Program-made: the position numbers and the translations under genes
The notes under the pieces: model-generated
Told to the model about the DNA's origin: nothing
The model's database searches: none
What the model saw: only the letters and a program-made list of their open reading frames with translations
Source of the DNA: Arenicola marina
Lineage: Eukaryota; Annelida; Polychaeta; Arenicolidae
Assembly (NCBI GenBank): GCA_964019135.1
Contig: OZ025260.1
Span: 24,174,254 to 24,238,253, forward strand
DNA: 64,000 bases
Direction: 5' to 3'
Shown: one piece after another, positions 32,729-63,362 of the stretch
Position numbering within the stretch: position 1 is the stretch's first letter
How the letters are laid out: every line of letters starts with the position of its first letter

Positions 32729-34311
32729 TTGGTATAAACCACGAACATAAATCTGATATAAGGGTAGAGAAAGTGTTTTTATTCATTTATAATAATATAT
32801 CAAATGAAAATACTGTGAAAGGAGTACCTATTAAAAATAGACATACACATACCAAACTCCGGACCGTGACATATTTATAATACCAGACACCTCTGTTATT
32901 ATCCGTTTGGAGACAAAGCAGAATATAATACTGTCAAGAGACTTTAACGTCCTTAACACAGCGCAACAAAATATGCACTGAGTTGTTGTCGACGGCAATA
33001 TTAAACACAAACTCTAGGGTCATCAAAATGACACCATCATATACTTCGATGTTTAGATAAATGTTTATCCTCTAGTTTTCTATTATCTACAATATACATA
33101 CCGGTGTCAGTAAAAATAAATAATGCTATACTGGGGAGAGTACCAACAAGTCCGTTCAGTCTCAATTCCAGGGGCCGTATATAAAAAAAAAAAGGCGAAA
33201 GTTGCGCACGAATCGCTTCTCGCAGCTTCACTACCAAGCGGTGGTTCACAGTCACACAACAGTATGTAGACTTGTTCCTTATTCTAAAAATACCTTTGAT
33301 GCGTTGTAATGCTGTTGTTTACGGGGATAACCGTTTCAAAACGACCTGCATTACAATTGCGCAGCGCAGGTCTATCTGGTCCGAAATAGTAACCAAAACC
33401 CCAGGAGGTGGGAGTTCCTAAAGTAGGAAAGTGCGTAAATGATATTACAAATCATCGTGTCCGGATCGGGGCTTCCACCACTGCGAGTTTTCACGAGAAG
33501 CCACGACGACAAGGCAGTTTTCGTGAGCCATCATTATATGGTAACCCTTACTAAAAGTTAGCTTTCAGTTGAAGTATATGAAGTCCTCAGCAGAAAGCTA
33601 GTTTTCACCAGGCCCGGGGACATGTAAATTACCCTAGTTAGAAAAAAGTTGAAATTTTGGTTGTCATGAAACTAATAATTGAAATCAGGAACTTAGAAGT
33701 GTTCATAGTTAGTAATTAGTTGAAATGAAGAAACTTGGTGAAAATCGTGAAACTAAAAAAGCTGGTTAAAATCAGGAAGATTTCAACGGTTGAAATTTGG
33801 GCAGTTGAAAACTAACAGATTTGCATGATAAATTATTTAGCTCAGGAATAAATGAATTCTAATAGCTGAAAAGTAACTATACAGTTGAAATTCGTGTCTT
33901 TTTTTTTGGAAAAGGGAACTACCGGTAGCTTATGCATGGGATTTTTATATGGGAGTATATACTCTTACTGATTTCATATCTAATTGGAAATGTACGTAGA
34001 ATGGTACGAAATCCTATGTCTATGAGTCAGGGCCTATAGGAAATACTACGGTCGGTACAGGGGCTGGGACAAAACCATAGGCGATTTTATGGCCCGTAGG
34101 TCATGTCGGGTGGAATGGAATATTCTATATTTCGGTTGGTCAACCTACGCCGCATAAAACTTCTGGTCATTCAGTGCAGGACTCCGTCACGTGATAGAAA
34201 AATTGAATAACTGGATATTTTATTTCGGTAAGAAGGAAATGACTTATGGGATAATCCCACTGTGTGTAATAGGTTAAAAAACATGCCGGAAACACCTTTG
34301 GCACAAAACAC
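32729..34311. other. Spacer, nothing supported
   Basis: AT-rich sequence without recognisable exons. A stretch at 33640-33900 has many GTTGAAAT and TGAAACTAA motifs, probably a decayed repeat. Confidence 0.5.
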
Positions 34312-39011: not shown

Positions 39012-39206
39012 TCAAATGACTTTGATATGCAGCTCATCCACTTCCTCTTCCGATAGGGGTCGCTTCAATCGCAGGTGTTCGAGCAGGTTGCTGAGGCACC
39101 CCCGGTCGTACGGGTTTCTATAATTACCGCTGGAGTCCTGCAGGTATTTGTAGCGGCGGTAGTTGATTCGCTCGTTGGTCGTCAGGTTAATAGCCGCGTG
39201 GTAAAC
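39012..39206 (-). CDS. Palmitoyltransferase last exon (TTxE and PaCCT motifs)
   Basis: 195 nt, phase 0 start after CCTTGCAG, 64 residues then TGA. Residues 1-12 are VYHAAINLTTNE; 31-40 are NPYDRGCLSN; the acidic tail ends EEEVDELHIKVI. Either upstream TM exon joins it in frame. Confidence 0.92.
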   Translation of the reverse strand, partial: VYHAAINLTTNERINYRRYKYLQDSSGNYRNPYDRGCLSNLLEHLRLKRPLSEEEVDELHIKVI

Positions 39207-42200
39207 CTGCAAGGAAACCACTCTGCTTCAGTCACAAAAGGGTTAATCACTTTAGAGTACATTATTATTGACAAAAAACAAGGAGTACATTACGCGTAGC
39301 GAGGTTAACATACCGGAGAGCGCTTATGGTGCACATGAGAAGCCTATAAGCCAATCACGATGGCATGGATTGCATGGGAACCCAAGCGCCGCATATCATA
39401 CAGAATTTATAGAGATAAACCACTGATAAACTGCGTAATTATCAGCAGGATGTGCCGAGTGCTAACCAAATATGAAAAAAACGTCACTGACTTCTGTCGC
39501 TGTCAACACACGCAAATGGCTCACTGTATGTACATAACATGAGCTAAGAAAAAACTTAATTCATTTGCTCTGCACTTCTAAGTGGACTAAGGCCCTGAAT
39601 CATAACAAGAATCACCAAGCGCTTGACGATACCCCACGGAAAACCCCTTCGCCGCTTCCCAACCCGGACCCGTGTCCCCCAGAATTTCCCCGCCCCCCAC
39701 CGAGAAGTGTCTCCCGGTGTGTCGTTTCCACTGAGGGGCCTCGGGAATGAGACCGTAGGCGCCGTCAGCCACACTGGTTATAGCTCGGCACGGATATGTA
39801 TAAATCAGACGAGCGAGATAATAGGTATAATCCAGTAAACCCCAGCGCCCCTGACCCCAGCCCCCCTGGCCCCAACCACACTGGCCCCATCCCCACTGGC
39901 CCCATCCGCACTGGCCCCAGCCCCCATGGCCCCAGCCACAGTGGCCCCAGCCACAGTGGCCCCAGCCACACCGGCCCCAGCCACGCTGGCCCCCGGTCGG
40001 CTCCATCCACACTGGCTCCACCCCGTCCAGACACCTACCGTGGCGACCAAGACCAAGTAGCTGACTATGGTGCAGAAGACGAGGTCGGGCAGGGGGGCAA
40101 TGTACTCGAGAGTCCAGCGCCAGCGGTCGAGGCGCCACACGAACGCCACCAAGTACACGCTCAAGGTCGCGCAGACGCCGGTGGCAGTTACGAAGATGAA
40201 GAACGACACTCTGTAAATAAGGGACGTCTGAGAGGGGTCTGCTGACTGGGGTAAATACGGGACGTGCGGCAGTCTGAGAGGGGGCGGCCGGGGGTCTGCT
40301 AACTGGGGTAAATACGGGACGTGCGGCAGTCTGAGAGGGGGCGGCCGGGGGTCTGCTGACTGGGGTAAATACGGGACGTGCGGCAGTCTGAGAGGGGGCC
40401 GACAGGGGTCTGCTGACTGGGGTAAATACGGGACGTGCGGCAGTCTGAGAGGGGGCGGCCGGGGGCCTGCTGACTGGGGTAAATACGGGACGTGCGGCAG
40501 TCTGAGAGGGGGCGGCCAGGGGTCTGCTGACTGGGGTAAATACGGGACGTGCGGCAGTCTGAGAGGGGGCGGCCGGGGGTCTGCTGACTGGGGTAAATAC
40601 GGGACGTGCGGCAGTCTGAGAGGGGGCGGCCGGGGGTCTGCTGACTGGGGTAAATACGGGACGTGCGGCAGTCTGAGAGGGGGCGGCCGGGGGTCTGCTA
40701 ACTGGGGTAAATACGGGACGTGCGGCAGTCTGAGAGGGGGCGGCCGGGGGTCTGCTGACTGGGGTAAATACGGGACGTGCGGCAGTCTCAGAGGGGGCGG
40801 CCGGGGGTCTGCTGACTGGGGTAAATACGGGACGTGCGGCAGTCTGAGAGGGGGCGGCCAGGGGTCTGCTGACTGGGGTAAATACGGGACGTGCGGCAGT
40901 CTGAGAGGGGGCCGACAGGGGTCTGCTGACTGGGGTAAATACGGGACGTGCGGCAGTCTGAGAGGGGGCGGCCGGGGGCCTGCTGACTGGGGTAAATACG
41001 GGACGTGCGGCAGTCTGAGAGGGGGCGGCCAGGGGTCTGCTGACTGGGGTAAATACGGGACGTGCGGCAGTCTGAGAGGGGGCGGCCGGGGGTCTGCTAA
41101 CTGAGGTAAATATGGGACGTGCGGCAGTCTGAGAGGGGGCGGCCGGGGGTCTGCTGACTGGGGTAAATACGGGACGTGCGGCAGTCTGAGAGGGGGCGGC
41201 CAGGGGTCTGCTGACTGGGGTAAATACGGGACGTGCGGCAGTCTGAGAGGGGGCGGCCGGGGGTCTGCTGACTGGGGTAAATACGGGACGTGCGGCAGTC
41301 TGAGAGGGGGCCGACAGGGGTCTGCTGACTGGGGTAAATACGGGACGTGCGGCAGTCTGAGAGGGGGCGGCCGGGGGTCTGCTGACTGGGGTAAATACGG
41401 GACGTGCGGCAGTCTGAGAGGGGGCGGCCAGGGGTCTGCTGACTGGGGTAAATACGGGACGTGCGGCAGTCTGAGAGGGGGCGGCCGGGGGTCTGCTGAC
41501 TGGGGTAAATACGGGACGTGCGGCAGTCTGAGAGGGGGCGGCCGGGGGTCTGCTGACTGGGGTAAATACGGGACGTGCGGCAGTCTGAGAGGGGGCGGCC
41601 AGGGGTCTGCTGACTGGGGTAAATACGGGACGTGCGGCAGTCTGAGAGGGGGCGGCCGGGGGTCTGCTGACTGGGGTAAATACGGGACGTGCGGCAGTCT
41701 GAGAGGGGGCGGCCAGGGGTCTGCTGACTGGGGTAAATACGGGACGTGCGGCAGTCTGAGAGGGGGCGGCCGGGGGTCTGCTAACTGGGGTAAACACGGG
41801 ACGTGCGGCAGTCTGAGAGGGGGCGGCCGGGGGTCTGCTAACTGGGGTAAACACGGGACGTGCGGCAGTCTGAGAGGGGGCGGCCGGGGGTCTGCTGACT
41901 GGGGTAAATACGGGACGTGCGGCAGTCTGAGAGGGGGCGGCCGGGAGTCTGCTGACTGGGGTAAATATGGGACGTGCGGCAGTCTGAGAGGGGGCGGCCA
42001 GGGGTCTGCTGACTGGGGTAAATACGGGACGTGCGGCAGTCTGAGAGGGGGCGGCCGGGGGTCTGCTGACTGAGGTAAATACGGGACGTGCGGCAGTCTG
42101 AGAGGGGGCGGCCGGGGGTCTGCTGACTGAGGTAAACACGGGACGTGCGGCAGTCTGAGAGGGGGCGGCCGGGGGTCTGCTGACTGAGGTAAACACGGGA

Positions 42201-45200
42201 CGTGCGGCAGTCTGAGAGGGGGCGGCCGGGGGTCTGCTGACTGGGGTAAATACGGGACGTGCGGGAGTCTGAGAGGGGGCGGCCAGGGGTCTGCTGACTG
42301 GGGTAAATACGGGACGTGCGGCAGTCTAAGAGGGGGCGGCCGGGGGTCTGCTGACTGGGGTAAATACGGGACGTGCGGCAGTCTGAGAGGGGGCGGCCGG
42401 GGGTCTGCTGACTGGGGTAAATACGGGACGCGCGGCAGTCTGAGAGGGGGCGGCCGGGGGTCTGCTGACTGGGGTAAATATGGGACGTGCGGGAGTCTCA
42501 GAGGGGGCGGCCAAGAGTCTGCAGACTGGGGTAAATATGGGACGTGCGGGAGTCTGAGAGGGGGCGGCCGGGGGTCTGCTGACTGGGGTAAATACGGGAC
42601 GTGCGGCAGTCTGAGAGGGGGCGGCCGGGGGTCTGCTAACTGGGGTAAACACGGGACGTGCGGCAGTCTGAGAGGGGGCGGCCGGGGGTCTGCTGACTGG
42701 GGTAAATATGGGACGTGCGGCAGTCTGAGAGGGGGCGGCCAGGGGTCTGCTGACTGGGGTAAATATGGGACGTGCGGCAGTCTGAGAGGGGGCGGCCAGG
42801 GGTCTGCTGACTGGGGTAAATACGGGACGTGCGGCAGTCTGAGAGGGGGCGGCCAGGGGTCTGCTGACTGGTATAAATACGGGACGTGCGGCAGTCTGAG
42901 AGGGGGCGGCCAGGGGTCTGCTGACTGGGGTAAATACGGGACGTGCGGCAGTCTGAGAGGGGGCGGCCGGGGGTCTGCTGACTGGGGTAAATACGGGACG
43001 TGCGGCAGTCTGAGAGGGGGCGGCCAGGGGTCTGCAGACTGGGGTAAATATGGGACGTGCGGCAGTCTGAGAGGGGGCGGCCAGGGGTCTGCTAACTGGG
43101 GTAAATACGGGACGTGCGGCAGTCTGAGAGGGGGCGGCCAGGGGTCTGCTGACTGGGGTAAATACGGGACGTGCGGCAGTCTGAGAGGGGGCGGCCGGGG
43201 GTCTGCTGACTGGGGTAAATACGGGACGTGCGGCAGTCTGAGAGGGGGCGGCCGGGGGTCTGCTAACTGGGGTAAATACGGGACGTGCGGCAGTCTGAGA
43301 GGGGGCGGCCAGGGGTCTGCTGACTGGGGTAAATACGGGACGTGCGGCAGTCTGAGAGGGGGCGGCCAGGGGTCTGCTGACTGGGGTAAATACGGGACGT
43401 GCGGCAGTCTGAGAGGGGGCGGCCAGGGGTCTGCTGACTGGGGTAAATACGGGACGTGCGGCAGTCTGAGAGGGGGCGGCCGGGGGTCTGCTGACTGAGG
43501 TAAACACGGGACGTGCGGCAGTCTGAGAGGGGGCGGCCGGGGGTCTGCTGACTGAGGTAAACACGGGACGTGCGGCAGTCTGAGAGGGGGCGGCCGGGGG
43601 TCTGCTGACTGGGGTAAATACGGGACGTGCGGGAGTCTGAGAGGGGGCGGCCAGGGGTCTGCTGACTGGGGTAAATACGGGACGTGCGGCAGTCTGAGAG
43701 GGGGCGGCCAGGGGTCGGCTGACTGGGGTAAATACGGGACGTGCGGCAGTCTGAGAGGGGGCGGCCAGGGGTCTGCTGACTGGGGTAAATACGGGACGTG
43801 CGGCAGTCTGAGAGGGGGCGGCCAGGGGTCTGCTGACTGGGGTAAATACGGGACGTGCGGCAGTCTGAGAGGGGGCGGCCAGGGGTCTGCTGACTGGGGT
43901 AAATACGGGACGTGCGGCAGTCTGAGAGGGGGCGGCCAGGGGTCTGCTGACTGGGGTAAATACGGGACGTGCGGCAGTCTGAGAGGGGGCGGCCAGGGGT
44001 CTGCTGACTGGGGTAAATACGGGACGTGCGGCAGTCTGAGAGGGGGCGGCCAGGGGTCTGCTGACTGGGGTAAATACGGGACGTGCGGCAGTCTGAGAGG
44101 GGGCGGCCAGGGGTCTGCTGACTCGGGTAAATATGGGACGTGCGACAGTCTGAGAGGGGGCGGCCGGGGGTCTGCTGACTGGGGTAAATACGGGACGTGC
44201 GGCAGTCTGAGAGGGGGCGGCCAGGGGTCTGCTGACTGGGGTAAATACGGGACGTGCGACAGTCTGAGAGGGGGCGGCCGGGGGTCTGCTGACTGGGGTA
44301 AATACGGGACGTGCGGCAGTCTGAGAGGGGGCGGCCGGGGGTCTGCTGACTGGGGTAAATATGGGACGTGCGACAGTCTGAGAGGGGGCGGCCGGGGGTC
44401 TGCTGACTGGGGTAAATACGGGACGTGCGACAGTCTGAGAGGGGGCGGCCGGGGGTCTGCTGACTGGGGTAAATACGGGACGTGCGCCAGTCTGAGAGGG
44501 GGCGACCGGGGGTCTGCTGACTGGGGTAAATATGGGACGTGCGACAGTCTGAGAGGGGGCGGCCGGGGGTCTGCTGACTGGGGTAAATACGGGACGTGCG
44601 GCAGTCTGAGAGGGGGCGGCCGGGGGTCTGCTGACTGGGGTAAATACGGGACGTGCGGCAGTCTGAGAGGGGGCGGCCAGGGGTCTGCTGACTGGGGTAA
44701 ATATGGGACGTGCGGCAGTCTGAGAGGGGGCGGCCGGGGGTCTGCTGACTGGGGTAAATACGGGACGTGCGGCAGTCTGAGAGGGGGCGGCCAGGGGTCT
44801 GCAGACTGGGGTAAATATGGGACGTGCGGCAGTCTGAGAGGGGGCGGCCGGGGGTCTGCTGACTGGGGTAAATACGGGACGTGCGGCAGTCTGAGAGGGG
44901 GCGGCCGGGGGTCTGCTAACTGGGGTAAACACGGGACGTGCGGCAGTCTGAGAGGGGGCGGCCGGGGGTCTGCTGACTGGGGTAAATATAGGACGTGCGG
45001 CAGTCTGAGAGGGGGCGGCCAGGGGTCTGCTGACTGGGGTAAATATGGGACGTGCGGCAGTCTGAGAGGGGGCGGCCAGGGGTCTGCTGACTGGGGTAAA
45101 TACGGGACGTGCGGCAGTCTGAGAGGGGGCGGCCAGGGGTCTGCTGACTGGGGTAAATACGGGACGTGCGGCAGTCTGAGAGGGGGCGGCCAGGGGTCTG

Positions 45201-48200
45201 CTGACTGGGGTAAATACGGGACGTGCGGCAGTCTGAGAGGGGGCGGCCGGGGGTCTGCTGACTAGGGTAAATACGGGACGTCCGGCAGTCTGAGAGGGGG
45301 CGGCCAAGGGTCTGCTGACTGGGGTAAATATGGGACGTGCGGCAGTCTGAGAGGGGGCGGCCGGGGGTCTGCTAACTGGGGTAAATACGGGACGTGCGGC
45401 AGTCTGAGAGGGGGCGGCCAGGGGTCTGCTGACTGGGGTAAATACGGGACGTGCGGCAGTCTGAGAGGGGGCGGCCGGGGGTCTGCTGACTGGGGTAAAT
45501 ACGGGACGTGCGGCAGTCTGAGAGGGGGCGGCCAGGGGTCTGCTGACTGAGGTAAATACGGGACGTGCGGCAGTCTGAGAGGGGGCGGCCGGGGGTCTGC
45601 TGACTGGGTTAAATACGGGACGTGCGGCAGTCTGAGAGGGGGCGGCCGGGGGTCTGCTGACTGGGGTAAATACGGGACGTGCGGCAGTCTGAGAGGGGGC
45701 GGCCAGGGGTCTGCTGACTGGGGTAAATACGGGACGTGCGGCAGTCTGAGAGGGGGCGGCCAGGGGTCTGCTGACTGGGGTAAATACGGGACGTGCGGCA
45801 GTCTGAGAGGGGGCGGCCAGGGGTCTGCTGACTGGGGTAAATACGGGACGTGCGGCAGTCTGAGAGGGGGCGGCCAGGGGTCTACTGACTGGGGTAAATA
45901 CGGGACGTGCGGCAGTCTGAGAGGGGGCGGCCAGGGGTCTGCTGACTGGGGTAAATACGGGACGTGCGGCAGTCTGAGAGGGGGCGGCCAGGGGTCTGCT
46001 GACTGGGGTAAATACGGGACGTGCGGCAGTCTAAGAAGGGGCGGCCGGGGGTCTGCTAACTGGGGTAAATACGGGACGTGCGGCAGTCTGAGAGGGGGCG
46101 GCCAGGGGTCTGCTGACTGGGGTAAATACGGGACGTGCGGCAGTCTGAGAGGGGGCGGCCAGGGGTCTGCTGACTGGGGTAAATACGGGACGTGCGGCAG
46201 TCTGAGAGGGGGCGGCCAGGGGTCTGCTGACTGGGGTAAATACGGGACGTGCGGCAGTCTGAGAGGGGGCGGCCAGGGGTCTGCTGACTGGGGTAAATAC
46301 GGGACGTGCGGCAGTCTGAGAGGGGGCGGCCAGGGGTCTGCTGACTGGGGTAAATACGGGACGTGCGGCAGTCTGAGAGGGGGCGGCCAGGGGTCTGCTG
46401 ACTGGGGTAAATACGGGACGTCCGGCAGTCTGAGAGGGGGCGGCCAGGGGTCTGCTGACTGGGGTAAATACGGGACGTGCGGCAGTCTGAGAGGGGGCGG
46501 CCAGGGGTCTGCTGACTGGGGTAAATACAGGACGTGCGGCAGTCTGAGAGGGGGCGGCCAGGGGTCTGCTGACTGGGGTAAATACGGGACGTGCGGCAGT
46601 CTGAGAGGGGGCGGCCAGGGGTCTGCTGACTGGGGTAAATACGGGACGTGCGGCAGTCTGAGAGGGGGCGGTAAGGGGTCTGCTGACTGGGGTAAATATG
46701 GGACGTGCGACAGTCTGAGAGGGGGCGGCCGGGGGTCTGCTGACTGGGGTAAATACGGGACGTGCGGCAGTCTGAGAGGGGGCGGCCAGGGGTCTGCTGA
46801 CTGGGGTAAATACGGGACGTGCGACAGTCTGAGAGGGGGCGGCCGGGGGTCTGCTGACTGGGGTAAATACGGGACGTGCGGCAGTCTGAGAGGGGGCGGC
46901 CGGGGGTCTGCTGACTGGGGTAAATATGGGACGTGCGACAGTCTGAGAGGGGGCGGCCGGGGGTCTGCTGACTGGGGTAAATACGGGACGTGCGACAGTC
47001 TGAGCGGGGGCGGCCGGGGGTCTGCTGACTGGGGTAAATACGGGACGTGCGGCAGTCTGAGAGGGGGCGGCCGGGGGTCTGCTGACTGGCGTAAATATGG
47101 GACGTGCGACAGTCTGAGAGGGGGCGGCCGGGGGTCTGCTGACTGGGGTAAATACGGGACGTGCGACAGTCTGAGAGGGGGCGGCCGGGGGTCTGCTGAC
47201 TGGGGTAAATACGGGACGTGCGGCAGTCTGAGAGGGGGCGGCCGGGGGTCTGCTGACTGGGGTAAATATGGGACGTGCGACAGTCTGAGAGGGGGCGGCC
47301 GGGGGTCTGCTGACTGGGGTAAATACGGGACGTGCGGCAGTCTGAGAGGGGGCGGCCGGGGGTCTGCTGACTGGGGTAAATACGGGACGTGCGGCAGTCT
47401 GAGAGGGGGCGGCCAGGGGTCTGCTGACTGGGGTAAATACGGGACGTGCGGCAGTCTGAGAGGGGGCGGCCAGGGGTCTGCTGACTGGGGTAAATACGGG
47501 ACGTGCGGCAGTCTGAGAGGGGGCGGCCGGGGGGCTGCTGACTGGGGTAAATACGGGACGTGCGGCAGTCTGAGAGGGGGCGGCCGGGGGTCTGCTGACT
47601 GGGGTAAATACGGGACGTGCGGCAGTCTGAGAGGGGGCGGCCGGGGGTCTGCTGACTGAGGTAAACACGGGACGTGCGGCAGTCTGAGAGGGGGCGGCCG
47701 GGGGTCTGCTGACTGAGGTAAACACGGGACGTGCGGCAGTCTGAGAGGGGGCGGCCGGGGGTCTGCTGACTGGGGTAAATACGGGACGTGCGGGAGTCTG
47801 AGAGGGGGCGGCCAGGGGTCTGCTGACTGGGGTAAATACGGGACGTGCGGCAGTCTGAGAGGGGGCGGCCAGGGGTCGGCTGACTGGGGTAAATACGGGA
47901 CGTGCGGCAGTCTGAGAGGGGGCGGCCAGGGGTCTGCTGACTGGGGTAAATACGGGACGTGCGGCAGTCTGAGAGGGGGCGGCCAGGGGTCTGCTGACTG
48001 GGGTAAATACGGGACGTGCGGCAGTCTGAGAGGGGGCGGCCAGGGGTCTGCTGACTGGGGTAAATACGGGACGTGCGGCAGTCTGAGAGGGGGCGGCCGG
48101 GGGTCTGCTGACTGGGGTAAATACGGGACGTGCGGCAGTCTGAGAGGGGGCGGCCAGGGGTCTGCTGACTGGGGTAAATACGGGACGTGCGGCAGTCTGA

Positions 48201-51200: not shown

Positions 51201-54200
51201 CGGGACGTGCGGCAGTCTGAGAGGGGGCGGCCAGGGGTCTGCTGACTGGGGTAAATACGGGACGTCCGGCAGTCTGAGAGGGGGCGGCCAGGGGTCTGCT
51301 GACTGGGGTAAATACGGGACGTGCGGCAGTCTGAGAGGGGGCGGCCAGGGGTCTGCTGACTGGGGTAAATACAGGACGTGCGGCAGTCTGAGAGGGGGCG
51401 GCCAGGGGTCTGCTGACTGGGGTAAATACGGGACGTGCGGCAGTCTGAGAGGGGGCGGCCAGGGGTCTGCTGACTGGGGTAAATACGGGACGTGCGGCAG
51501 TCTGAGAGGGGGCGGTAAGGGGTCTGCTGACTGGGGTAAATATGGGACGTGCGACAGTCTGAGAGGGGGCGGCCGGGGGTCTGCTGACTGGGGTAAATAC
51601 GGGACGTGCGGCAGTCTGAGAGGGGGCGGCCAGGGGTCTGCTGACTGGGGTAAATACGGGACGTGCGACAGTCTGAGAGGGGGCGGCCGGGGGTCTGCTG
51701 ACTGGGGTAAATACGGGACGTGCGGCAGTCTGAGAGGGGGCGGCCGGGGGTCTGCTGACTGGGGTAAATATGGGACGTGCGACAGTCTGAGAGGGGGCGG
51801 CCGGGGGTCTGCTGACTGGGGTAAATACGGGACGTGCGACAGTCTGAGCGGGGGCGGCCGGGGGTCTGCTGACTGGGGTAAATACGGGACGTGCGGCAGT
51901 CTGAGAGGGGGCGGCCGGGGGTCTGCTGACTGGCGTAAATATGGGACGTGCGACAGTCTGAGAGGGGGCGGCCGGGGGTCTGCTGACTGGGGTAAATACG
52001 GGACGTGCGACAGTCTGAGAGGGGGCGGCCGGGGGTCTGCTGACTGGGGTAAATACGGGACGTGCGGCAGTCTGAGAGGGGGCGGCCGGGGGTCTGCTGA
52101 CTGGGGTAAATATGGGACGTGCGACAGTCTGAGAGGGGGCGGCCGGGGGTCTGCTGACTGGGGTAAATACGGGACGTGCGGCAGTCTGAGAGGGGGCGGC
52201 CGGGGGTCTGCTGACTGGGGTAAATACGGGACGTGCGGCAGTCTGAGAGGGGGCGGCCAGGGGTCTGCTGACTGGGGTAAATACGGGACGTGCGGCAGTC
52301 TGAGAGGGGGCGGCCAGGGGTCTGCTGACTGGGGTAAATACGGGACGTGCGGCAGTCTGAGAGGGGGCGGCCGGGGGTCTGCTGACTGGGGTAAATACGG
52401 GACGTGCGGCAGTCTGAGAGGGGGCGGCCGGGGGTCTGCTGACTGGGGTAAATACGGGACGTGCGGCAGTCTGAGAGGGGGCGGCCGGGGGTCTGCTGAC
52501 TGAGGTAAACACGGGACGTGCGGCAGTCTGAGAGGGGGCGGCCGGGGGTCTGCTGACTGAGGTAAACACGGGACGTGCGGCAGTCTGAGAGGGGGCGGCC
52601 GGGGGTCTGCTGACTGGGGTAAATACGGGACGTGCGGGAGTCTGAGAGGGGGCGGCCAGGGGTCTGCTGACTGGGGTAAATACGGGACGTGCGGCAGTCT
52701 GAGAGGGGGCGGCCAGGGGTCGGCTGACTGGGGTAAATACGGGACGTGCGGCAGTCTGAGAGGGGGCGGCCAGGGGTCTGCTGACTGGGGTAAATACGGG
52801 ACGTGCGGCAGTCTGAGAGGGGGCGGCCAGGGGTCTGCTGACTGGGGTAAATACGGGACGTGCGGCAGTCTGAGAGGGGGCGGCCAGGGGTCTGCTGACT
52901 GGGGTAAATACGGGACGTGCGGCAGTCTGAGAGGGGGCGGCCGGGGGTCTGCTGACTGGGGCAAATACGGGACGTGCGGCAGTCTGAGAGGGGGCGGCCA
53001 GGGGTCTGCTGACTGGGGTAAATACGGGACGTGCGGCAGTCTGAGAGGGGGCGGCCAGGGGTCTGCTGACTGGGGTAAATACGGGACGTGCGGCAGTCTG
53101 AGAGGGGGCGGCCAGGGGTCTGCTGACTGGGGTAAATATGGGACGTGCGACAGTCTGAGAGGGGGCGGCCGGGGGTCTGCTGACTGGGGTAAATACGGGA
53201 CGTGCGGCAGTCTGAGAGGGGGCGGCCAGGGGTCTGCTGACTGGGGTAAATACGGGACGTGCGACAGTCTGAGAGGGGGCGGCCGGGGGTCTGCTGACTG
53301 GGGTAAATACGGGACGTGCGGCAGTCTGAGAGGGGGCGGCCGGGGGTCTGCTGACTGGGGTAAATATGGGACGTGCGACAGTCTGAGAGGGGGCGGCCGG
53401 GGGTCTGCTGACTGGGGTAAATACGGGACGTGCGACAGTCTGAGAGGGGGCGGCCGGGGGTCTGCTGACTGGGGTAAATACGGGACGTGCGCCAGTCTGA
53501 GAGGGGGCGACCGGGGGTCTGCTGACTGGGGTAAATATGGGACGTGCGACAGTCTGAGAGGGGGCGGCCGGGGGTCTGCTGACTGGGGTAAATACGGGAC
53601 GTGCGGCAGTCTGAGAGGGGGCGGCCGGGGGTCTGCTGACTGGGGTAAATACGGGACGTGCGGCAGTCTGAGAGGGGGCGGCCAGGGGTCTGCAGACTGG
53701 GGTAAATATGGGACGTGCGGCAGTCTGAGAGGGGGCGGCCGGGGGTCTGCTGACTGGGGTAAATACGGGACGTGCGGCAGTCTGAGAGGGGGCGGCCGGG
53801 GGTCTGCTAACTGGGGTAAACACGGGACGTGCGGCAGTCTGAGAGGGGGCGGCCGGGGGTCTGCTGACTGGGGTAAATATGGGACGTGCGGCAGTCTGAG
53901 AGGGGGCGGCCAGGGGTCTGCTGACTGGGGTAAATATGGGACGTGCGGCAGTCTGAGAGGGGGCGGCCAGGGGTCTGCTGACTGGGGTAAATACGGGACG
54001 TGCGGCAGTCTGAGAGGGGGCGGCCAGGGGTCTGCTGACTGGGGTAAATACGGGACGTGCGGCAGTCTGAGAGGGGGCGGCCAGGGGTCTGCTGACTGGG
54101 GTAAATACGGGACGTGCGGCAGTCTGAGAGGGGGCGGCCGGGGGTCTGCTGACTGGGGTAAATACGGGACGTCCGGCAGTCTGAGAGGGGGCGGCCAGGG

Positions 54201-57200
54201 GTCTGCTGACTGGGGTAAATATGGGACGTGCGGCAGTCTGAGAGGGGGCGGCCGGGGGTCTGCTAACTGGGGTAAATACGGGACGTGCGGCAGTCTGAGA
54301 GGGGGCGGCCAGGGGTCTGCTGACTGGGGTAAATACGGGACGTGCGGCAGTCTGAGAGGGGGCGGCCGGGGGTCTGCTGACTGGGGTAAATACGGGACGT
54401 GCGGCAGTCTGAGAGGGGGCGGCCAGGGGTCTGCTGACTGAGGTAAATACGGGACGTGCGGCAGTCTGAGAGGGGGCGGCCGGGGGTCTGCTAACTGGGG
54501 TAAATACGGGACGTGCGGCAGTCTGAGAGGGGGCGGCCGGGGGTCTGCTGACTGGGGTAAATACGGGACGTGCGGCAGTCTGAGAGGGGGCGGCCAGGGG
54601 TCTGCTGACTGGGGTAAATACGGGACGTGCGGCAGTCTGAGAGGGGGCGGCCAGGGGTCTGCTGACTGGGGTAAATACGGGACGTGCGGCAGTCTGAGAG
54701 GGGGCGGCCAGGGGTCTGCTGACTGGGGTAAATACGGGACGTGCGGCAGTCTGAGAGGGGGCGGCCAGGGGTCTGCTGACTGGGGTAAATACGGGACGTG
54801 CGGCAGTCTGAGAGGGGGCGGCCAGGGGTCTGCTGACTGGGGTAAATACGGGACGTGCGGCAGTCTGAGAGGGGGCGGCCAGGGGTCTGCTGACTGGGGT
54901 AAATACGGGACGTGCGGCAGTCTGAGAGGGGGCGGCCAGGGGTCTGCTGACTGGGGTAAATACGGGACGTGCGGCAGTCTGAGAGGGGGCGGCCAGGGGT
55001 CTGCTGACTGGGGTAAATACGGGACGTGCGGCAGTCTGAGAGGGGGCGGCCAGGGGTCTGCTGACTGGGGTAAATACGGGACGTGCGGCAGTCTGAGAGG
55101 GGGCGGCCAGGGGTCTGCTGACTGGGGTAAATACGGGACGTGCGGCAGTCTGAGAGGGGGCGGCCAGGGGTCTGCTGACTGGGGTAAATATGGGACGTGC
55201 GACAGTCTGAGAGGGGGCGGCCGGGGGTCGGCTGACTGGGGTAAATACGGGACGTGCGGCAGTCTGAGAGGGGGCGGCCAGGGGTCTGCTGACTGGGGTA
55301 AATACGGGACGTGCGACAGTCTGAGAGGGGGCGGCCGGGGGTCTGCTGACTGGGGTAAATACGGGACGTGCGGCAGTCTGAGAGGGGGCGGCCGGGGGTC
55401 TGCTGACTGGGGTAAATATGGGACGTGCGGCAGTCTGAGAGGGGGCGGCCGGGGGTCTGCTGACTGGGGTAAATACGGGACGTGCGGCAGTCTGAGAGGG
55501 GGCGGCCAGGGGTCTGCTGACTGGGGTAAATACGGGACGTGCGGCAGTCTGAGAGGGGGCGGCCAGGGGTCTGCTGACTGGGGTAAATACGGGACGTGCG
55601 GCAGTCTGAGAGGGGGCGGCCAGGGGTCTGCTGACTGGGGTAAATATGGGACGTGCGGCAGTCTGAGAGGGGGCGGCCGGGGGTCTGCTGACTGGGGTAA
55701 ATATGGGACGTGCGGCAGTCTGAGAGGGGGCGGCCAGGGGTCTGCTGACTGGGGTAAATACGGGACGTGCGGCAGTCTGAGAGGGGGCGGCCGGGGGTCT
55801 GCTGACTGGGGTAAATACGGGACGTGCGGCAGTCTGAGAGGGGGCGGCCAGGGGTCTGCTGACTGGGGTAAATACGGGACGTGCGGCAGTCTGAGAGGGG
55901 GCGGCCGGGGGTCTGCTGACTAGGGTAAATACGGGACGTGCGGCAGTCTGAGAGGGGGCGGCCGGGGGTCTGCTAACTGGGGTAAACACGGGACGTGCGG
56001 CAGTCTGAGAGGGGGCGGCCGGGGGTCTGCTGACTGGGGTAAATACGGGACGTGCGGCAGTCTGAGAGGGGGCGGCCGGGGGTCTGCTGACTGGGGTAAA
56101 TACGGGACGTGCGGCAGTCTGAGAGGAGGCGGCCGGGGGTCTGCTGACTGAGGTAAACACGGGACGTGCGGCAGTCTGAGAGGGGGCGGCCGGGGGTCTG
56201 CTGACTGAGGTAAACACGGGACGTGCGGCAGTCTGAAAGGGGGCGGCCGGGGGTCTGCTGACTGGGGTAAATACGGGACGTGCGGGAGTCTGAGAGGGGG
56301 CGGCCAGGGGTCTGCTGACTGGGGTAAATACGGGACGTGCGGCAGTCTAAGAGGGGGCGGCCGGGGGTCTGCTGACTGGGGTAAATACGGGACGTGCGGC
56401 AGTCTGAGAGGGGGCGGCCGGGGGTCTGCTGACTGGGGTAAATACGGGACGTGCGGGAGTCTGAGAGGGGGCGGCCGGGGGTCTGCTGACTGGGGTAAAT
56501 ACGGGACGTGCGGCAGTCTGAGAAGGGGCGGCCAGGGGTCTGCTAACTGGGGTAAACACGGGACGTGCGGCAGTCTGAGAGGGGGCGGCCGGGGGTCTGC
56601 TGACTGGGGTAAATATGGGACGTGCGGGAGTCTCAGAGGGGGCGGCCAAGAGTCTGCAGACTGGGGTAAATATGGGACGTGCGGGAGTCTGAGAGGGGGC
56701 GGCCGGGGGTCTGCTGACTGGGGTAAATACAGGAGGTGCGGCAGTCTGAGAGGGGGCGGCCGGGGGTCTGCTAACTGGGGTAAACACGGGACGTGCGGCA
56801 GTCTGAGAGGGGGCGGCCGGGGGTCTGCTGACTGGGGTAAATATGAGACGTGCGGCAGTCTGAGAGGGGGCGGCCAGGGGTCTGCTGACTGGGGTAAATA
56901 CGGGACGTGCGGCAGTCTGAGAGGGGGCGGCCAGGGGTCTGCTGACTGGGGTAAATATGGGACGTGCGGCAGTCTGAGAGGGGGCGGCCAGGGGTCTGCT
57001 GACTGGGGTAAATACGGGACGTGCGGCAGTCTGAGAGGGGGCGGCCAGGGGTCTGCTGACTGGGGTAAATACGGGACGTGCGGCAGTCTGAGAGGGGGCG
57101 GCCAGGGGTCTGCTGACTGGGGTAAATACGGGACGTGCGGCAGTCTGAGAGGGGGCGGCCGGGGGTCTGGTGACTGGGGTAAATACGGGACGTGCGGCAG

Positions 57201-60200
57201 TCTGAGAGGGGGCGGCCAGGGGTCTGCTGACTGGGGTAAATATGGGACGTGCGGCAGTCTGAGAGGGGGCGGCCGGGGGTCTGCTAACTGGGGTAAATAC
57301 GGGACGTGCGGCAGTCTGAGAGGGGGCGGCCGGGGGTCTGCTGACTGGGGTAAATACGGGACGTGCGGCAGTCTGAGAGGGGGCGGCCAGGGGTATGCTG
57401 ACTGGGGTAAATACGGGACGTGCGGCAGTCTGAGAGGGGGCGGCCAGGGGTCTGCTGACTGGGGTAAATACGGGACGTGCGGCAGTCTGAGAGGGGGCGG
57501 CCAGGGGTCTGCTGACTGGGGTAAATACGGGACGTGCGGCAGTCTGAGAGGGGGCGGCCAGGGGTCTGCTGACTGGGGTAAATACGGGACGTGCGGCAGT
57601 CTGAGAGGGGGCGGCCAGGGGTCTGCTGACTGGGGTAAATACGGGACGTGCGGCAGTCTGAGAGGGGGCGGCCAGGGGTCTGCTGACTGGGGTAAATACG
57701 GGACGTGCGGCAGTCTGAGAGGGGGCGGCCAGGGGTCTGCTGACTGGGGTAAATACGGGACGTGCGGCAGTCTGAGAGGGGGCGGCCAGGGGTCTGCTGA
57801 CTGGGGTAAATACGGGACGTGCGGCAGTCTGAGAGGGGGCGGCCGGGGGTCTGCTGACTGGGGTAAATATGGGACGTGCGACAGTCTGAGAGGGGGCGGC
57901 CGGGGGTCTGCTGACTGGGGTAAATATGGGACGTGCGGGAGTCTCAGAGGGGGCGGCCAAGAGTCTGCAGACTGGGGTAAATATGGGACGTGCGGGAGTC
58001 TGAGAGGGGGCGGCCGGGGGTCTGCTGACTGGGGTAAATACAGGAGGTGCGGCAGTCTGAGAGGGGGCGGCCGGGGGTCTGCTAACTGGGGTAAACACGG
58101 GACGTGCGGCAGTCTGAGAGGGGGCGGCCGGGGGTCTGCTGACTGGGGTAAATATGAGACGTGCGGCAGTCTGAGAGGGGGCGGCCAGGGGTCTGCTGAC
58201 TGGGGTAAATACGGGACGTGCGGCAGTCTGAGAGGGGGCGGCCAGGGGTCTGCTGACTGGGGTAAATATGGGACGTGCGGCAGTCTGAGAGGGGGCGGCC
58301 AGGGGTCTGCTGACTGGGGTAAATACGGGACGTGCGGCAGTCTGAGAGGGGGCGGCCAGGGGTCTGCTGACTGGGGTAAATACGGGACGTGCGGCAGTCT
58401 GAGAGGGGGCGGCCAGGGGTCTGCTGACTGGGGTAAATACGGGACGTGCGGCAGTCTGAGAGGGGGCGGCCGGGGGTCTGGTGACTGGGGTAAATACGGG
58501 ACGTGCGGCAGTCTGAGAGGGGGCGGCCAGGGGTCTGCTGACTGGGGTAAATATGGGACGTGCGGCAGTCTGAGAGGGGGCGGCCGGGGGTCTGCTAACT
58601 GGGGTAAATACGGGACGTGCGGCAGTCTGAGAGGGGGCGGCCGGGGGTCTGCTGACTGGGGTAAATACGGGACGTGCGGCAGTCTGAGAGGGGGCGGCCA
58701 GGGGTATGCTGACTGGGGTAAATACGGGACGTGCGGCAGTCTGAGAGGGGGCGGCCAGGGGTCTGCTGACTGGGGTAAATACGGGACGTGCGGCAGTCTG
58801 AGAGGGGGCGGCCAGGGGTCTGCTGACTGGGGTAAATACGGGACGTGCGGCAGTCTGAGAGGGGGCGGCCAGGGGTCTGCTGACTGGGGTAAATACGGGA
58901 CGTGCGGCAGTCTGAGAGGGGGCGGCCAGGGGTCTGCTGACTGGGGTAAATACGGGACGTGCGGCAGTCTGAGAGGGGGCGGCCATTGGTCTGCTGACTG
59001 GGGTAAATACGGGACGTGCGGCAGTCTGAGAGGGGGCGGCCAGGGGTCTGCTGACTGGGGTAAATACGGGACGTGCGGCAGTCTGAGAGGGGGCGGCCAG
59101 GGGTCTGCTGACTGGGGTAAATACGGGACGTGCGGCAGTCTGAGAGGGGGCGGCCGGGGGTCTGCTGACTGGGGTAAATATGGGACGTGCGACAGTCTGA
59201 GAGGGGGCGGCCGGGGGTCTGCTGACTGGGGTAAATACGGGACGTGCGACAGTCTGAGAGGGGGCGGCCGGGGTCTGCTGACTGGGGTAAATACGGGACG
59301 TGCGGCAGTCTGAGAGGGGGCGGCCGGGGGTCTGCTGACTGGGGTAAATATGGGACGTGCGACAGTCTGAGAGGGGGCGGCCGGGGGTCTGCTGACTGGG
59401 GTAAATACGGGACGTGCGGCAGTCTGAGAGGGGGCGGCCAGGGGTCTGCTGACTGGGGTAAATACGGGACGTGCGGCAGTCTGAGAGGGGGCGGCCAGGG
59501 GTCTGCTGACTGGGGTAAATACGGGACGTGCGGCAGTCTGAGAGGGAGCGGCCAGGGGTCTGCTGACTGGGGTAAATACGGGACGTGCGGCAGTCTGAGA
59601 GGGGGCGGCCAGGGGTCTGCTGACTGGGGTAAATACGGGACGTGCGGCAGTCTGAGAGGGGGCGGCCAGGGGTCTGCTGACTGGGGTAAATACGGGACGT
59701 GCGGCAGTCTGAGAGGGGGCGGCCAGGGGTCTGCTGACTGGGGTAAATATGGGACGTGCGGGAGTCTCAGAGGGGGCGGCCAAGAGTCTGCAGACTGGGG
59801 TAAATATGAGACGTGCGGGAGTCTCAGAGGGGGCGGCCGGGGGTCTGCTGACTGGGGCAAACACGGAAAGTGCGGGAGTCTGAGAGGGGATGGCCGGGGG
59901 TCTGCTGACTGGGGTCAACATGGGACGTGCGGGAATCTGAGAGGGGGCGGTCGGGGGTCTATTGACTGGGGCATATACCGGCATAGGGGGTTTGATAACC
60001 GGGGGTCTACCGACATGAAGGTCTACCAACCGGGGGATCTACCGACTGAGGGGACGGGAACAATGCTGACCAGAGAAGAACCTACCGCAAACCGGGGCTT
60101 CAACCGACTGGGGATCTACAAACCAGGGATAACAGACAGGGGGCCCACAGACCGGGGGTCAGCGACTGGGTAAAGACAGACAGGGGGCCTACAGACCTGG

Positions 60201-63200
60201 GGTCAGTAACCGGAAAAAAATGACAGACAGGGGGCTGACAGACCTGGGGTCAGTGACCGGGTTATGACAGACAGGGGGCCTACAGACCGGGGGTCAGTGA
60301 CCGTATACTGACAGACAGGGGGCCTACAGACCTGGGGCCAGTGACCGGATAATGACAGACAGGGGGCTGACAGACCTGGGGTCAGTGACCGGATAATGAC
60401 AGACAGGGGGCCTACAGAACTGGGGTCAGTGACCGGATAATGACAGACAGGGGCCGACAGACCTGGGGTCAGAGACCGGATAATGACAGACAGGGGGCCT
60501 ACAGAACTGGGGTCAGTGACCGGATAATGACAGATAGGGGGCCTACAGACCGGGGGTCAGTGACCGGATAATGACAGACAGGGGGCCGACAGACCGGGGG
60601 TCAGTGACCGGATAATGACAGGCAGTGGGCCTACAGACCGGGGGTCAGTGGCCGTATAATGACAGACAGGAGGCAGACAGATATGGGGTCAGTGATCGGA
60701 TAATGACAGACAGGGGGCCGACAGACCTGGGGTCAGTGACCGGATAATGACAGACAGGGGGCCGACAGACCTGGGGTCAGTGACCAGATAATGACAGACA
60801 GGGGGCCTACAGAACTGGGGTCAGTGACCGGAAAATGACAGACAGGGGGCCGACAGACCTGGGGTCAGTGACCGGATAATGACAGACAGGGGCCTACAGA
60901 ACTGGGGTCAGTGACCGGATAATGACAGACAGAGGGCCGACAGACCTGGGGTCAGTGACCGGATAATGACAGACATGGGGCCGACAGACCTGGGGTCAGT
61001 GACCAGATAATGACAGACAGGGGGCCTACAGACCGGGGGTCAGTGACCGGATAATGACAGACAAGGGGCCTATAGACCTGGGGTCAGTGACCGAATAATG
61101 ACAGACAGGGGGCCGACAGACCTGGGGTCAGTGACCAGATAATGACAGACCGGGGGCCGACAGACCTGGGCTTAGTGACCGGATAATGACAGACAGGGGG
61201 CCTACAGAACTGGGGTCAGTAACCGGAAAATGACAGACAGGAGGCAGACAGATCTGGGGTCAGTGACCGGATAATGACAGAGAGGGGGCCTACAGACCTG
61301 GGGTCAGTAACCGGAAAATGACAGACAGGGGACTGACAGACCTGGGGTCAGTGACCGGATAATGACAGACAGGGGGCCTACAGAACTGGGGTCAGTAACC
61401 GGAAAATGACAGACAGGAGGCAGACAGATCTGGGGTCAGTGACCGGATAATGACAGACAGGGGGCCTACAGAACTGGGGTCAGTGACCGGATAATGACAG
61501 ACAGGGGGCCTACAGACCGGGGGTCAGTGACCGGATAATGACAGACAGGGGGCCGACAGACCTGGGGTCAGTGACCGGATAATGACAGGCAGTGGGCTTA
61601 CAGACCGGGGGTCAGTGGCCGTATAATGACAGACAGGAGGCAGACAGATATGGGGTCAGTGAGCGGATAATGACAGACAGGGGGCCGACAGACCTGGGGT
61701 CAGTGACCGGATAATGACAGACAGGGGGCCGACAGACCTGGGGTCAGTGACCAGATAATGACAGACAGGGGGCCTACAGAACTGGGGTCAGTGACCGCAT
61801 AATGACAGAGAGGGGGCCTACAGACCTGGGGTCAGTGACCGGATAATGACAGACAGGGGCCTGACAGACCTGGGGTCAGTTACCGGGTTATGACAGACAG
61901 GGGGCCTACATACCTGGGGTCAGTGACCGGATAATGACAGACAGGAGGCAGACAGATCTGGGTCAGTGACCGGATAATGACAGACAGGGGGCCGACAGAC
62001 CTGGGGTCAGTGACCAGATAATAACAGACAGGGAGCCTACAGACCTGGGGTCAGTGACCAGATAATGACAGACAGGGGGCCTACAGACCGAGGGTCAGTG
62101 ACCGTATAATGACAGACAGGAGGCAGACAGATCTGGGGTCAGTGACCGGATAATGACAGACAGGGGGCCGACAGTCCTGAGGTGAGTGACCGCATAATGA
62201 CAGAGAGTGGGCCGACAGCCCTGGGGTGAGTGACCGGATAATGACAGACAGGGGGTCTACAGACCTGGGGTCAGTGACCGGATAATGACAGACAGGGGGC
62301 CTACAGACCGGGAGTCAGTGACTGTATAATGACAGACAGGGGGCCTACAGACCGGGAGTCAGTGACTGTATAATGACAGACAGGAGGCAGACAGATCTGG
62401 GGTCAGTGACGGTATACTGACCGACAGGGGGCCGACAGACCTGGGGTCAGTGACCGGATAATGACAGACAGGGGGCCGACAGACCTGGGGTCAGTGACCG
62501 GATAATGACAGACAGGGGGCCTATAGACCTGGGGTCAGCGACCGGATAATGAGAGACAGGGGGCCGACAGACCTGGGGTCAGTGACCAGATAATGACAGA
62601 CAGGGGGCCTACAGACCTGGGGTCAGTGACCGCATAATGACAGACAGGAAGCAGATAGATCTGGGGTCAGTGACGGGATGATTCTAGTAAACCCCACATG
62701 GCCGGCGTACGAGAGCAATGAAATGAAATGTTGGTGATCAGGTCGCCGTGGAGCCCATCAGGGTACACTAGGGCCAAGAAGCCTCCCGGAACAATGATTT
62801 GGGGTTGGATGAACTGTTCCACCATCAGCCTGCTAAGGACGGTGTACTGTGGCGTACAGCACTGTACAATAGTGTATAGCGGTGTACATCAGGGTACAGC
62901 GGTGTACAGCAGTGTACAGAGGTGTACAGCAGTGTACAGCAGTGTACAGCAGTGCACAGCAGTGTACAGCAGTGTACTGTACAGCGATGTACAGCAGTGT
63001 ACAGCGGTGTACAGCAGTGTACAGCGGTGTACAGCAGTGTACAGCAGTGTACAGCAGTGTACAGCAGTGTACAGCGCTGTACAATAGTGTACAGCGGTGT
63101 ACATCAGTGTACAGCGGTGTACATCAGTGTACAGCGGTGTACATCAGTGTACATCAGTGTACATCAGTGTACATCAGTGTACAGCAGTGTACTCACGGCG

Positions 63201-63362
63201 CAAGCTACCAGGAGGATGACCATCACAGTGAAGGCTGCCATCTCGAGGCCGGCGAGGACCAGGAGGCAGTCCCAGCCCGCCACCCGCCACAGGAACCCAA
63301 TGAAATAGTCCGCCAGGAAGATGTTGAGGCAGCAGGAGCTGATGAAGAGGAGGAAACCCACC
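39012..63362 (-). CDS. DHHC palmitoyltransferase, C-terminal part (HIP14-like)
   Basis: DHHC enzymes transfer palmitate to cysteines of membrane and peripheral proteins, mostly at the Golgi and plasma membrane (family knowledge). Seen here are the last exon (39012-39206) and two alternative-looking versions of the exon before it (40039-40210 and 63197-63362). The last exon carries TTNERINYRRYKY, containing the TTxE motif just after the final TM, and NPYDRGCLSN, the PaCCT-like motif. TTNER-N-RRYK resembles the HIP14/ZDHHC13-17 and plant TIP1 ankyrin group as I recall them. The catalytic DHHC cysteine-rich domain and the N-terminus must lie right of the window. The intron between the two TM exons is almost entirely minisatellite. 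Joining both TM exons together would break the frame. Confidence 0.85.
39846..40018. repeat. 15-bp minisatellite beside a donor
   Basis: About 11 copies of a 15-bp unit around GGCCCCAGCCACACT. On the minus strand it begins some 20 bases after the GTAGGT donor of the 40039-40210 exon. Confidence 0.9.
40039..40210 (-). CDS. Palmitoyltransferase TM exon, version B (proximal)
   Basis: 172 nt: one base, then 57 codons ending ACG|GTAGGT in phase 0. Acceptor CTTATTTACAG. It encodes VSFFIFVTATGVCATL, VYLVAFVWR and DLVFCTIVSYLVLVAT, i.e. the two TMs that precede TTxE. If the upstream exon ends in AG or CG, the split codon is Arg, as expected for the conserved N-H-R before this TM. Homologous to 63197-63362. 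Confidence 0.87.
40213..59990 (-). repeat. 57-bp minisatellite, ~347 copies, ~19.8 kb
   Basis: The unit on the plus strand runs TAAATACGGGACGTGCGGCA, GTCTGAGAGGGGGCGGCC, then GGGGTCTGCTGACTGGGG. The first, shorter unit (40213-40250) includes the acceptor region of the 40210 exon. Unit length is 19 codons, so all three minus frames stay open for kilobases. Single-base deletions near 50738 and 59270 switch frame. Units are highly homogeneous in the middle and decay at the right edge (59850-59990). Higher-order repeats are visible: 85-unit, 71-unit and 23-unit blocks. Confidence 0.98.
59991..60119. repeat. Diverged transition between 57-bp and 44-bp arrays
   Basis: Short phrases such as ACCGGGGGATCTACCGACTG recall both neighbours, suggesting that one array arose from degenerate sequence of the other. 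Confidence 0.5.
60120..62690. repeat. 44-bp minisatellite, ~58 copies
   Basis: Units based on CAGTGACCGGATAATGACAG, ACAGGGGGCCTACAGACCTG and GGGT, with GGCCGACAG and GGAGGCAGACAG variants. Blocks of several variant units recur in order (for example the 60500 and 61450 regions). It lies in the same minus-strand intron as the 57-bp array. Confidence 0.95.
62706..62830. mobile_element. Dispersed repeat (possible non-LTR 3' end), pair with 19669-19765
   Basis: ATGAAATGAAATGTTGGTGA and CCAAGAAGCCTCCCGG are shared with 19669-19765. It sits between the 44-bp and 10-bp arrays, the only non-tandem piece in the intron. Confidence 0.45.
62838..63190 (-). repeat. 10-bp minisatellite beginning at the +5 of an intron
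   Basis: About 35 copies of GTGTACAGCA/G with GTGTACATCA variants. Read on the minus strand it starts inside the donor GTGAGTACACTGCTGTACAC of the 63197-63362 exon, so the unit seems to come from the intron's first bases. Confidence 0.95.
63197..63362 (-). CDS. Palmitoyltransferase TM exon, version A (distal)
   Basis: 166 nt: one base, then 55 codons ending GCC|GTGAGT in phase 0. Acceptor GACACCAG after a C-rich tract. It encodes VGFLLFISSCCLNIFL, YFIGFLWRVAGW and MAAFTVMVILLVACA. Compared with version B it has the same phases, nearly equal length, and shared residues V1, F3, F6, L16, Y19, F23, W25, R26 and W30. ILLVACA then VYH aligns well with the HIP14 sequence before TTNER. Confidence 0.75.

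What the first reader, a model, noticed from the sequence alone, without database searches (positions are those of the whole stretch)
39012..63362. Candidate mutually exclusive exons swapping the last two TMs of a palmitoyltransferase
Exons 40039-40210 and 63197-63362 encode homologous TM pairs (shared V1, F3, F6, L16, Y19, F23, W25, R26, W30). Both start with one base of a split codon and both end in phase 0. Joining one to the other shifts the frame, while each joins the last exon (VYHAAINLTTNE) in frame, and no second last exon is seen between them. If both are used, one gene makes two enzymes with different membrane segments next to the active site. In DHHC enzymes the TMs form the acyl-chain cavity (known from structures), so the choice could alter lipid preference.
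Basis: partly seen in the sequence, partly recalled or inferred. Interest (0 to 1): 0.88.

Follow-up and report, generated by a model that had tools for sequence, protein, structure and literature searches.

The report
Palmitoyltransferase with two swappable membrane halves
A gene in this genome, likely that of a polychaete worm, carries two different exons for the same pair of membrane helices beside the active site of a predicted palmitoyltransferase, and since snails and clams encode what appear to be the same two kinds, the animal likely makes two versions of the enzyme by an ancient either/or splicing choice.

Summary
Exons 63197-63362 (A) and 40039-40210 (B), minus strand, encode alternative versions of the last two membrane helices of one predicted ankyrin-DHHC palmitoyltransferase (Patsas type). 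Ankyrin, membrane and DHHC exons lie just upstream of the window. Either exon joins in frame to the single last exon and completes an Arg codon; using both or neither shifts the frame. No second last exon was found in 173 kb, and no second DHHC exon on this chromosome. Comparative evidence is new. Lophotrochozoan homologues fall into two hairpin classes, 55 aa (A) or usually 56-58 aa (B). Profiles class 39 of 39 left-out segments correctly and put window A in class A and window B, more weakly, in class B. In the clam Mya the classes are isoforms X2 and X1 of one gene; in two Elysia slugs both sit A-then-B in one predicted protein. Cytochrome oxidase makes the owner likely a phyllodocid polychaete; the annelid Owenia also has class B, so the pair likely predates the annelid-mollusc split, though an independent duplication is not excluded. 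Transcripts, exclusivity and lipid preference remain untested.

The parts
63197..63362 (-). Exon A: hairpin of the last two membrane helices, class A, 55 codons plus one base of a split Arg codon
   Evidence: Open frame, AG/GT sites; class-A profile 34.9 bits vs class B -0.0; 55 aa like 23 of 23 class-A segments
40039..40210 (-). Exon B: alternative hairpin, class B, 57 codons plus one base of a split Arg codon
   Evidence: Open frame, AG/GT sites; class-B profile 23.3 bits vs class A 12.4; 57 aa, the length of 9 of 17 class-B segments
39012..39206 (-). Exon C: single last coding exon (TTNE, C-terminus, stop)
   Evidence: In frame after A or B; only last exon found in 173 kb
40211..63196 (-). 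22,986-nt intron between A and B, 98.5% tandem repeats
40233..59978 (.). 57-bp tandem array, 346.5 copies; a degenerate unit at its edge supplies the exon-B acceptor
   Evidence: alignment of the exon-B 3' splice region to the unit
60132..62679 (.). 44-bp tandem array, 57.9 copies
62854..63192 (.). 10-bp tandem array, 34.4 copies, starting 4 nt after exon A

Best explanation
One ankyrin-DHHC gene carries two homologous exons, A and B, for the pair of membrane helices that follows the DHHC motif, and the mRNA likely takes one or the other, giving two predicted palmitoyltransferases that would differ only in that membrane half. Shown: gene structure, phases, one DHHC exon on the chromosome and one last exon in 173 kb, frame loss if both or neither is used, similarity of A and B, and two matching hairpin classes in molluscs. 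Inferred: that both exons are spliced in vivo and never together. Also inferred: that the pair was present in the annelid-mollusc ancestor. Untested: that the swap changes acyl-chain or protein-substrate choice; in human DHHC20 residues of these two helices help form the acyl-chain cavity.
For: Both spliced forms are open, and their DHHC-to-end parts hit Pfam DHHC at 78.8 and 85.6 bits against a cut-off of 28.7. Of 35 DHHC matches in the genome, 1 lies on this chromosome, in the upstream exon. Both exons complete an Arg codon. Profiles: 39 of 39 left-out segments are classed correctly; window A 34.9 (A) vs -0.0 (B); window B 23.3 (B) vs 12.4 (A); 0 of 1000 shuffles reach either own-class score. 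Of 104 segments outside both sets, 3 score B above A, by at most 5.1 bits, against 10.9 for window B. Mya LOC128228063 X2 (A) and X1 (B) are identical over 409 residues, then diverge. Elysia crispata and E. chlorotica proteins hold A then B in series. Mercenaria (A) and Ruditapes (B) are 97.6% identical over 413 residues upstream, Patella (A) and Lottia (B) 92% over 264.
Against: No transcript was seen for either exon here. Both window hairpins score at the low end of their class: A 34.9 against 33.8-84.1 for left-out members, B 23.3 against 37.4-74.9. Window B also scores 12.4 with class A, which only 1 of 1000 shuffles reaches. The branch joining window B to class B has support 57/0.7, and AU tests reject neither window A and B as sisters (p 0.19) nor both inside class A (p 0.24). 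The ankyrin-DHHC part does not group the window with the annelid Owenia. In Mya, and between Mercenaria and Ruditapes, the tails after the hairpin differ too (40% and 44% identical), so the single-last-exon layout is not universal. Stops in the last exon would not trigger exon-junction NMD. The high third-position GC of B (0.91) sits in GC-rich surroundings (0.65-0.68) and proves little.
Confidence: 0.83

Rival explanations
1. Two tandem paralogous genes, with the last exon of the first and the upstream exons of the second lost when the assembly collapsed across the arrays.
For: The interval between A and B is 98.5% tandem repeat, where assemblies can fail. Nucella has two separate proteins, P0016 (A) and P0033 (B), on contigs of different length, that differ throughout.
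Against: No N in the window; one DHHC match on this contig among 35 in the genome; A then B recurs in two Elysia proteins, and both classes are isoforms of one Mya gene.
Confidence: 0.07
2. One exon, most likely B, is a silent relic: only the other is used.
For: No RNA evidence; window B scores lower with its class (23.3 bits) than any of the 17 left-out class-B members (37.4-74.9).
Against: 57 open codons, correct phase at both ends and GT/AG sites, and a class-B preference that neutral drift would likely have erased if it dates from the annelid-mollusc ancestor.
Confidence: 0.09
3. The pair is real and alternative but arose by a separate duplication in this lineage, not from the ancestral class B.
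For: Window A and B share F23, W25, R26 and W30 and are 27% identical; AU tests do not reject them as sisters, p 0.19, or both inside class A, p 0.24.
Against: Window B prefers the class-B profile by 10.9 bits and has the commonest class-B length; none of the 126 non-B segments tested (22, 104) prefers B by more than 5.1 bits.
Confidence: 0.22

Closest known systems
Mutually exclusive tandem-duplicated exons (e.g. ion channels, Dscam, myosin heavy chain)
   Same: Homologous neighbouring exons, equal flanking phases, one used per product; [quoted passage not shown] Dscam and myosin seen only in search listings)
   Different: Here the swapped part is the membrane half of a predicted lipid transferase, and the exons are 23 kb apart across tandem arrays
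Patsas (insect ankyrin-DHHC palmitoyltransferase; 'probable protein S-acyltransferase 23' in other animals)
   Same: Ankyrin repeats, membrane helices, DHHC, two more membrane helices, TTxE; three listed homologues are named Patsas
   Different: 100 of the 104 segments outside classes A and B are 55 aa, the class-A length; the 12 passages seen of PMC12795455 mention no second hairpin
Human ZDHHC17/ZDHHC13 (HIP14/HIP14L)
   Same: Ankyrin-DHHC layout; the HIP14 ankyrin domain ranks second and first among structural matches of the Mya models
   Different: Whether these genes have a second hairpin was not searched for here
Mya arenaria LOC128228063 isoforms X1/X2
   Same: One gene name, shared ankyrin-DHHC part, class-B or class-A hairpin
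   Different: The tails after the hairpin differ too (40% identical), so there the choice appears to be of 3'-terminal modules

Membership tests
Mutually exclusive homologous exons | Two neighbouring homologous exons between shared exons | tested here: met
   A and B between DHHC exon and C; alignment score 63 vs shuffle mean 0.8
Mutually exclusive homologous exons | Same phase at both ends, either one gives an open frame | tested here: met
   Partial proteins of 488 aa (A) and 490 aa (B), both open; both complete Arg
Mutually exclusive homologous exons | Double inclusion is non-productive | tested here: met
   A+B frameshift, stop 17 nt into C
Mutually exclusive homologous exons | Both exons found in transcripts, never together | not testable with these tools
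   No RNA data for this genome; indirect support from the names of Mya X1/X2
Mutually exclusive homologous exons | The same pair conserved in other species | tested here: inconclusive
   Both classes in one Mya gene and in two Elysia proteins and window exons fit them by profile, but AU tests leave an independent duplication open
Patsas-type ankyrin-DHHC palmitoyltransferase | Ankyrin repeats N-terminal to the membrane part | tested here: met
   Pfam Ank on the open frames holding the three ankyrin exons; the third only weakly (Ank_2 E 0.0057, below cut-off)
Patsas-type ankyrin-DHHC palmitoyltransferase | DHHC domain with intact DHHC motif, then two membrane helices and TTxE | tested here: met
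   DHHC above cut-off; hydropathy peaks after the motif in both forms; LTTNE in C
Patsas-type ankyrin-DHHC palmitoyltransferase | Palmitoyltransferase activity | not testable with these tools
   Needs expression and assay

The most novel reading that the evidence does not exclude
Since before annelids and molluscs parted, one palmitoyltransferase gene has kept a splicing switch that exchanges half of the acyl-chain cavity, letting the same ankyrin substrate-binding arm serve two active sites with different lipid preference; in this worm the choice is set by a 23-kb intron of tandem arrays whose edge forms the acceptor of exon B and whose 332 CCCCTCTCAG repeats act as decoy acceptors.
Probability: 0.18. 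Interest if true: 0.85.

Novelty: new member of a known kind. Interest (0 to 1): 0.64.

Why it matters
DHHC enzymes set which proteins carry which fatty acid, and how lipid choice evolves is open. A natural pair of enzymes identical except for the two helices after the DHHC motif would be a ready-made test of what those helices do. The two classes appear in mollusc and annelid proteins, so the idea can be tested in species with transcriptomes at hand. Paper searches joining mutually exclusive exons with palmitoyltransferases (13 of 13 listed), DHHC with mollusc splicing terms (15 of 25 listed), ZDHHC splice isoforms (5 of 5), mollusc and annelid exon terms (12 of 207, 10 of 1,055) and patsas (2 of 2) listed no report of this switch by title or start of abstract; the library holds open-licence PMC papers only.

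Tried and rejected
Rejected: A and B in series in one functional protein (frame); a second complete gene in the array; clashing splice-site types as the cause of exclusivity (A donor GTGAGT, B donor GTAGGT, DHHC donor GTATGT are of one kind); steric exclusion by a short intron (22,986 nt).

Led nowhere or limited: the whole-genome protein search for further hairpin exons did not complete. Structure models of Mya A and B (P0010, P0027; mean pLDDT 78.4 each) show two long helices in both after the DHHC motif (A 406-437 and 441-470; B 409-436 and 442-472), but the zinc-finger part is mostly at pLDDT 49-67, so the cavity could not be compared; the 50 listed fold matches of each were dominated by ankyrin domains and say nothing on the hairpins. 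Tree of hairpins: too few columns. First profile run gave no scores, I think because of an option clash, repeated; one search failed and was repeated; one search stopped half-way and was completed; one search printed only matches of A, those of B and C came; one search translated the wrong stretch of L015, repeated; one search was a report with a format fault.

Changed on re-check: I had called the hairpin TM5-TM6 by analogy with HIP14 (recalled). Hydropathy of the window protein shows one clear peak before the DHHC motif, and the Mya models two long helices before it, so a four-helix count is likelier; I now say 'last two helices'.

Rows dropped: hairpins could be cut from 140 of 155 homologues by pattern; of the 15 missed, the two Elysia proteins were cut as two segments each by separate rules, the other 13 not used. 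P0140 and P0143 were left out of the all-A profile but are among the 104. P0097 was not in the class-A profile. Classes A and B were first chosen by eye, then tested by leaving each out.

Full report
Observation. A and B start with one base of a split codon and end in phase 0. A+B is out of frame. The nine shared residues are present.

Gene model. The window is bases 24174254-24238253 of contig C13 in an 867-Mb assembly. I fetched 59 kb upstream and found more of the gene: ankyrin exons at window-frame positions 68620-69026, 68220-68353 and 67543-67685, membrane exons 67047-67143 and 66205-66357, and the DHHC exon 65448-65620. The start exon was not found. With A the partial protein is 488 aa, with B 490 aa, both open. 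The DHHC exon ends with AG of a split codon: A adds G, B adds A, so both give Arg. If A and B are joined, or both skipped, the first stop falls 17 or 22 nt into C, which exon-junction NMD would not be expected to see; such products would lack the TTxE region. Pfam finds ankyrin repeats, weakest in the third ankyrin exon, and a DHHC domain. Solved relatives by sequence include ZDHHC9, DHHC20, ZDHHC5 and ERF2. Hydropathy peaks follow the DHHC motif in both forms.

One gene, not two. Of 35 DHHC matches in the genome (a lower bound, by the tool's own note), one is on C13, in the DHHC exon upstream. Tails of 152 homologues found no other last exon or hairpin exon in window plus upstream, and nothing convincing in 50 kb downstream, where the best of the weak matches had E 0.004.

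Comparative evidence. The spliced A form found 277 homologues at E up to 1e-10, best 120 listed, across animals; a second search with a Haliotis C-terminal part listed 120 of 122. Hairpins were cut from 140 of 155 proteins, plus four segments from two Elysia proteins. Two classes stand out. Class A, chosen from molluscs, nemerteans and unnamed sources, is 55 aa in 23 of 23 segments, and 100 of 104 remaining segments are also 55 aa. Class B is 56-58 aa in 16 of 17 segments, the exception being a 50-aa cut from Elysia chlorotica. Class B comes from 13 named molluscs, the annelid Owenia and one unnamed source. Profiles built from 22 A and 17 B segments class all 39 correctly when each is left out. 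Window A scores 34.9 (A) and -0.0 (B); window B 12.4 (A) and 23.3 (B); no shuffle of 1000 reaches either own-class score, while 1 of 1000 shuffles of B reaches its class-A score. Both window scores lie at or below the low end of their class.

Same gene in other species. Mya X1 and X2 carry the same locus name, are identical up to NNR, then take class B or A. A further Mya prediction holds the later part of A followed by B. Elysia crispata and E. chlorotica predictions run A then B then one tail. Mercenaria (A) and Ruditapes (B) are 97.6% identical upstream yet 31% in the hairpin; Patella (A) and Lottia (B) 92% and 13%. The limpet tails are 87% identical, as expected from a shared last exon; the Mya tails are 40% and the Mercenaria-Ruditapes tails 44% identical, so there the last exon appears to be swapped too. 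Biomphalaria has two class-B forms on identical upstream parts, with different tails. I saw these as protein records and names, not reads or genomic exons.

Which animal. The assembly's cytochrome oxidase I (C762, translated) is closest, among the 120 listed of 7,999 scored, to Pilargis wolfi (92%; order Phyllodocida) and other annelids. The owner is therefore likely a phyllodocid polychaete. The ankyrin-DHHC tree does not confirm this: the window row is long and sits with two unnamed rows, away from Owenia.

Age. With class B in molluscs, in Owenia and, by profile, in the window, the simplest reading is one duplication before annelids and molluscs split. The hairpin tree cannot prove it: the branch has support 57/0.7, and neither window A and B as sisters (p 0.19) nor both inside class A (p 0.24) is rejected.

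Function. In the passages seen of PMC9105814, changing Ser29 or Tyr181 shifts human DHHC20's acyl-chain preference in experiments cited there, and simulation names Ser29, Val185 and Ser217 as the cavity's ceiling. By numbering (my inference; helix assignment recalled) 181 and 185 lie in the first, 217 in the second helix after the DHHC motif, the helices swapped here. Ungapped counting, unsure by one residue, puts Asn and Ala in A and Cys and Ser in B at 181 and 185. This makes different chain preference plausible, not shown. Drosophila Patsas is reported Golgi-localised and needed for secretory granule-endosome and granule-lysosome fusion (PMC12795455, abstract start and 12 passages seen).

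Intron. The 22,986 nt between A and B are 98.5% tandem arrays. The region before exon B aligns to a shortened copy of the 57-bp unit, so the acceptor of B lies at the array's edge; CCCCTCTCAG occurs 332 times in sense and never in antisense. The next AG upstream of B's acceptor is 17 nt away, but exons ank3 and C have such an AG at 17 and 14 nt, so this alone is not unusual. A regulatory role is conjecture.

Verdict.

Noticed in passing
40211-40260 and 63193-63197: Both splice sites facing the A-B intron abut tandem arrays: exon B's acceptor lies in a degenerate copy of the 57-bp unit, exon A's donor is 4 nt from a 10-bp array.
   Followed up: partly
28918-30132 (+): 404-aa open frame with several hydrophobic-looking stretches, then tandem peptide repeats; its first 214 aa hit no Pfam family at E up to 0.1.
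   Followed up: partly
31985-32778: Tandem repeat open in three listed frames, two plus and one minus.
   Followed up: no
G000:C9:39543422-39859038: Five DHHC matches within 316 kb, four with open frames over 330 aa, a likely cluster of other DHHC genes.
   Followed up: no
P0011 and P0020 (Biomphalaria glabrata): Identical for 398 residues, then two different class-B hairpins with different tails: some pulmonates may have more than two choices.
   Followed up: partly
P0016 and P0033 (Nucella lapillus): Separate proteins of class A and class B that differ throughout, as if the exon choice had become two genes in some whelks.
   Followed up: no
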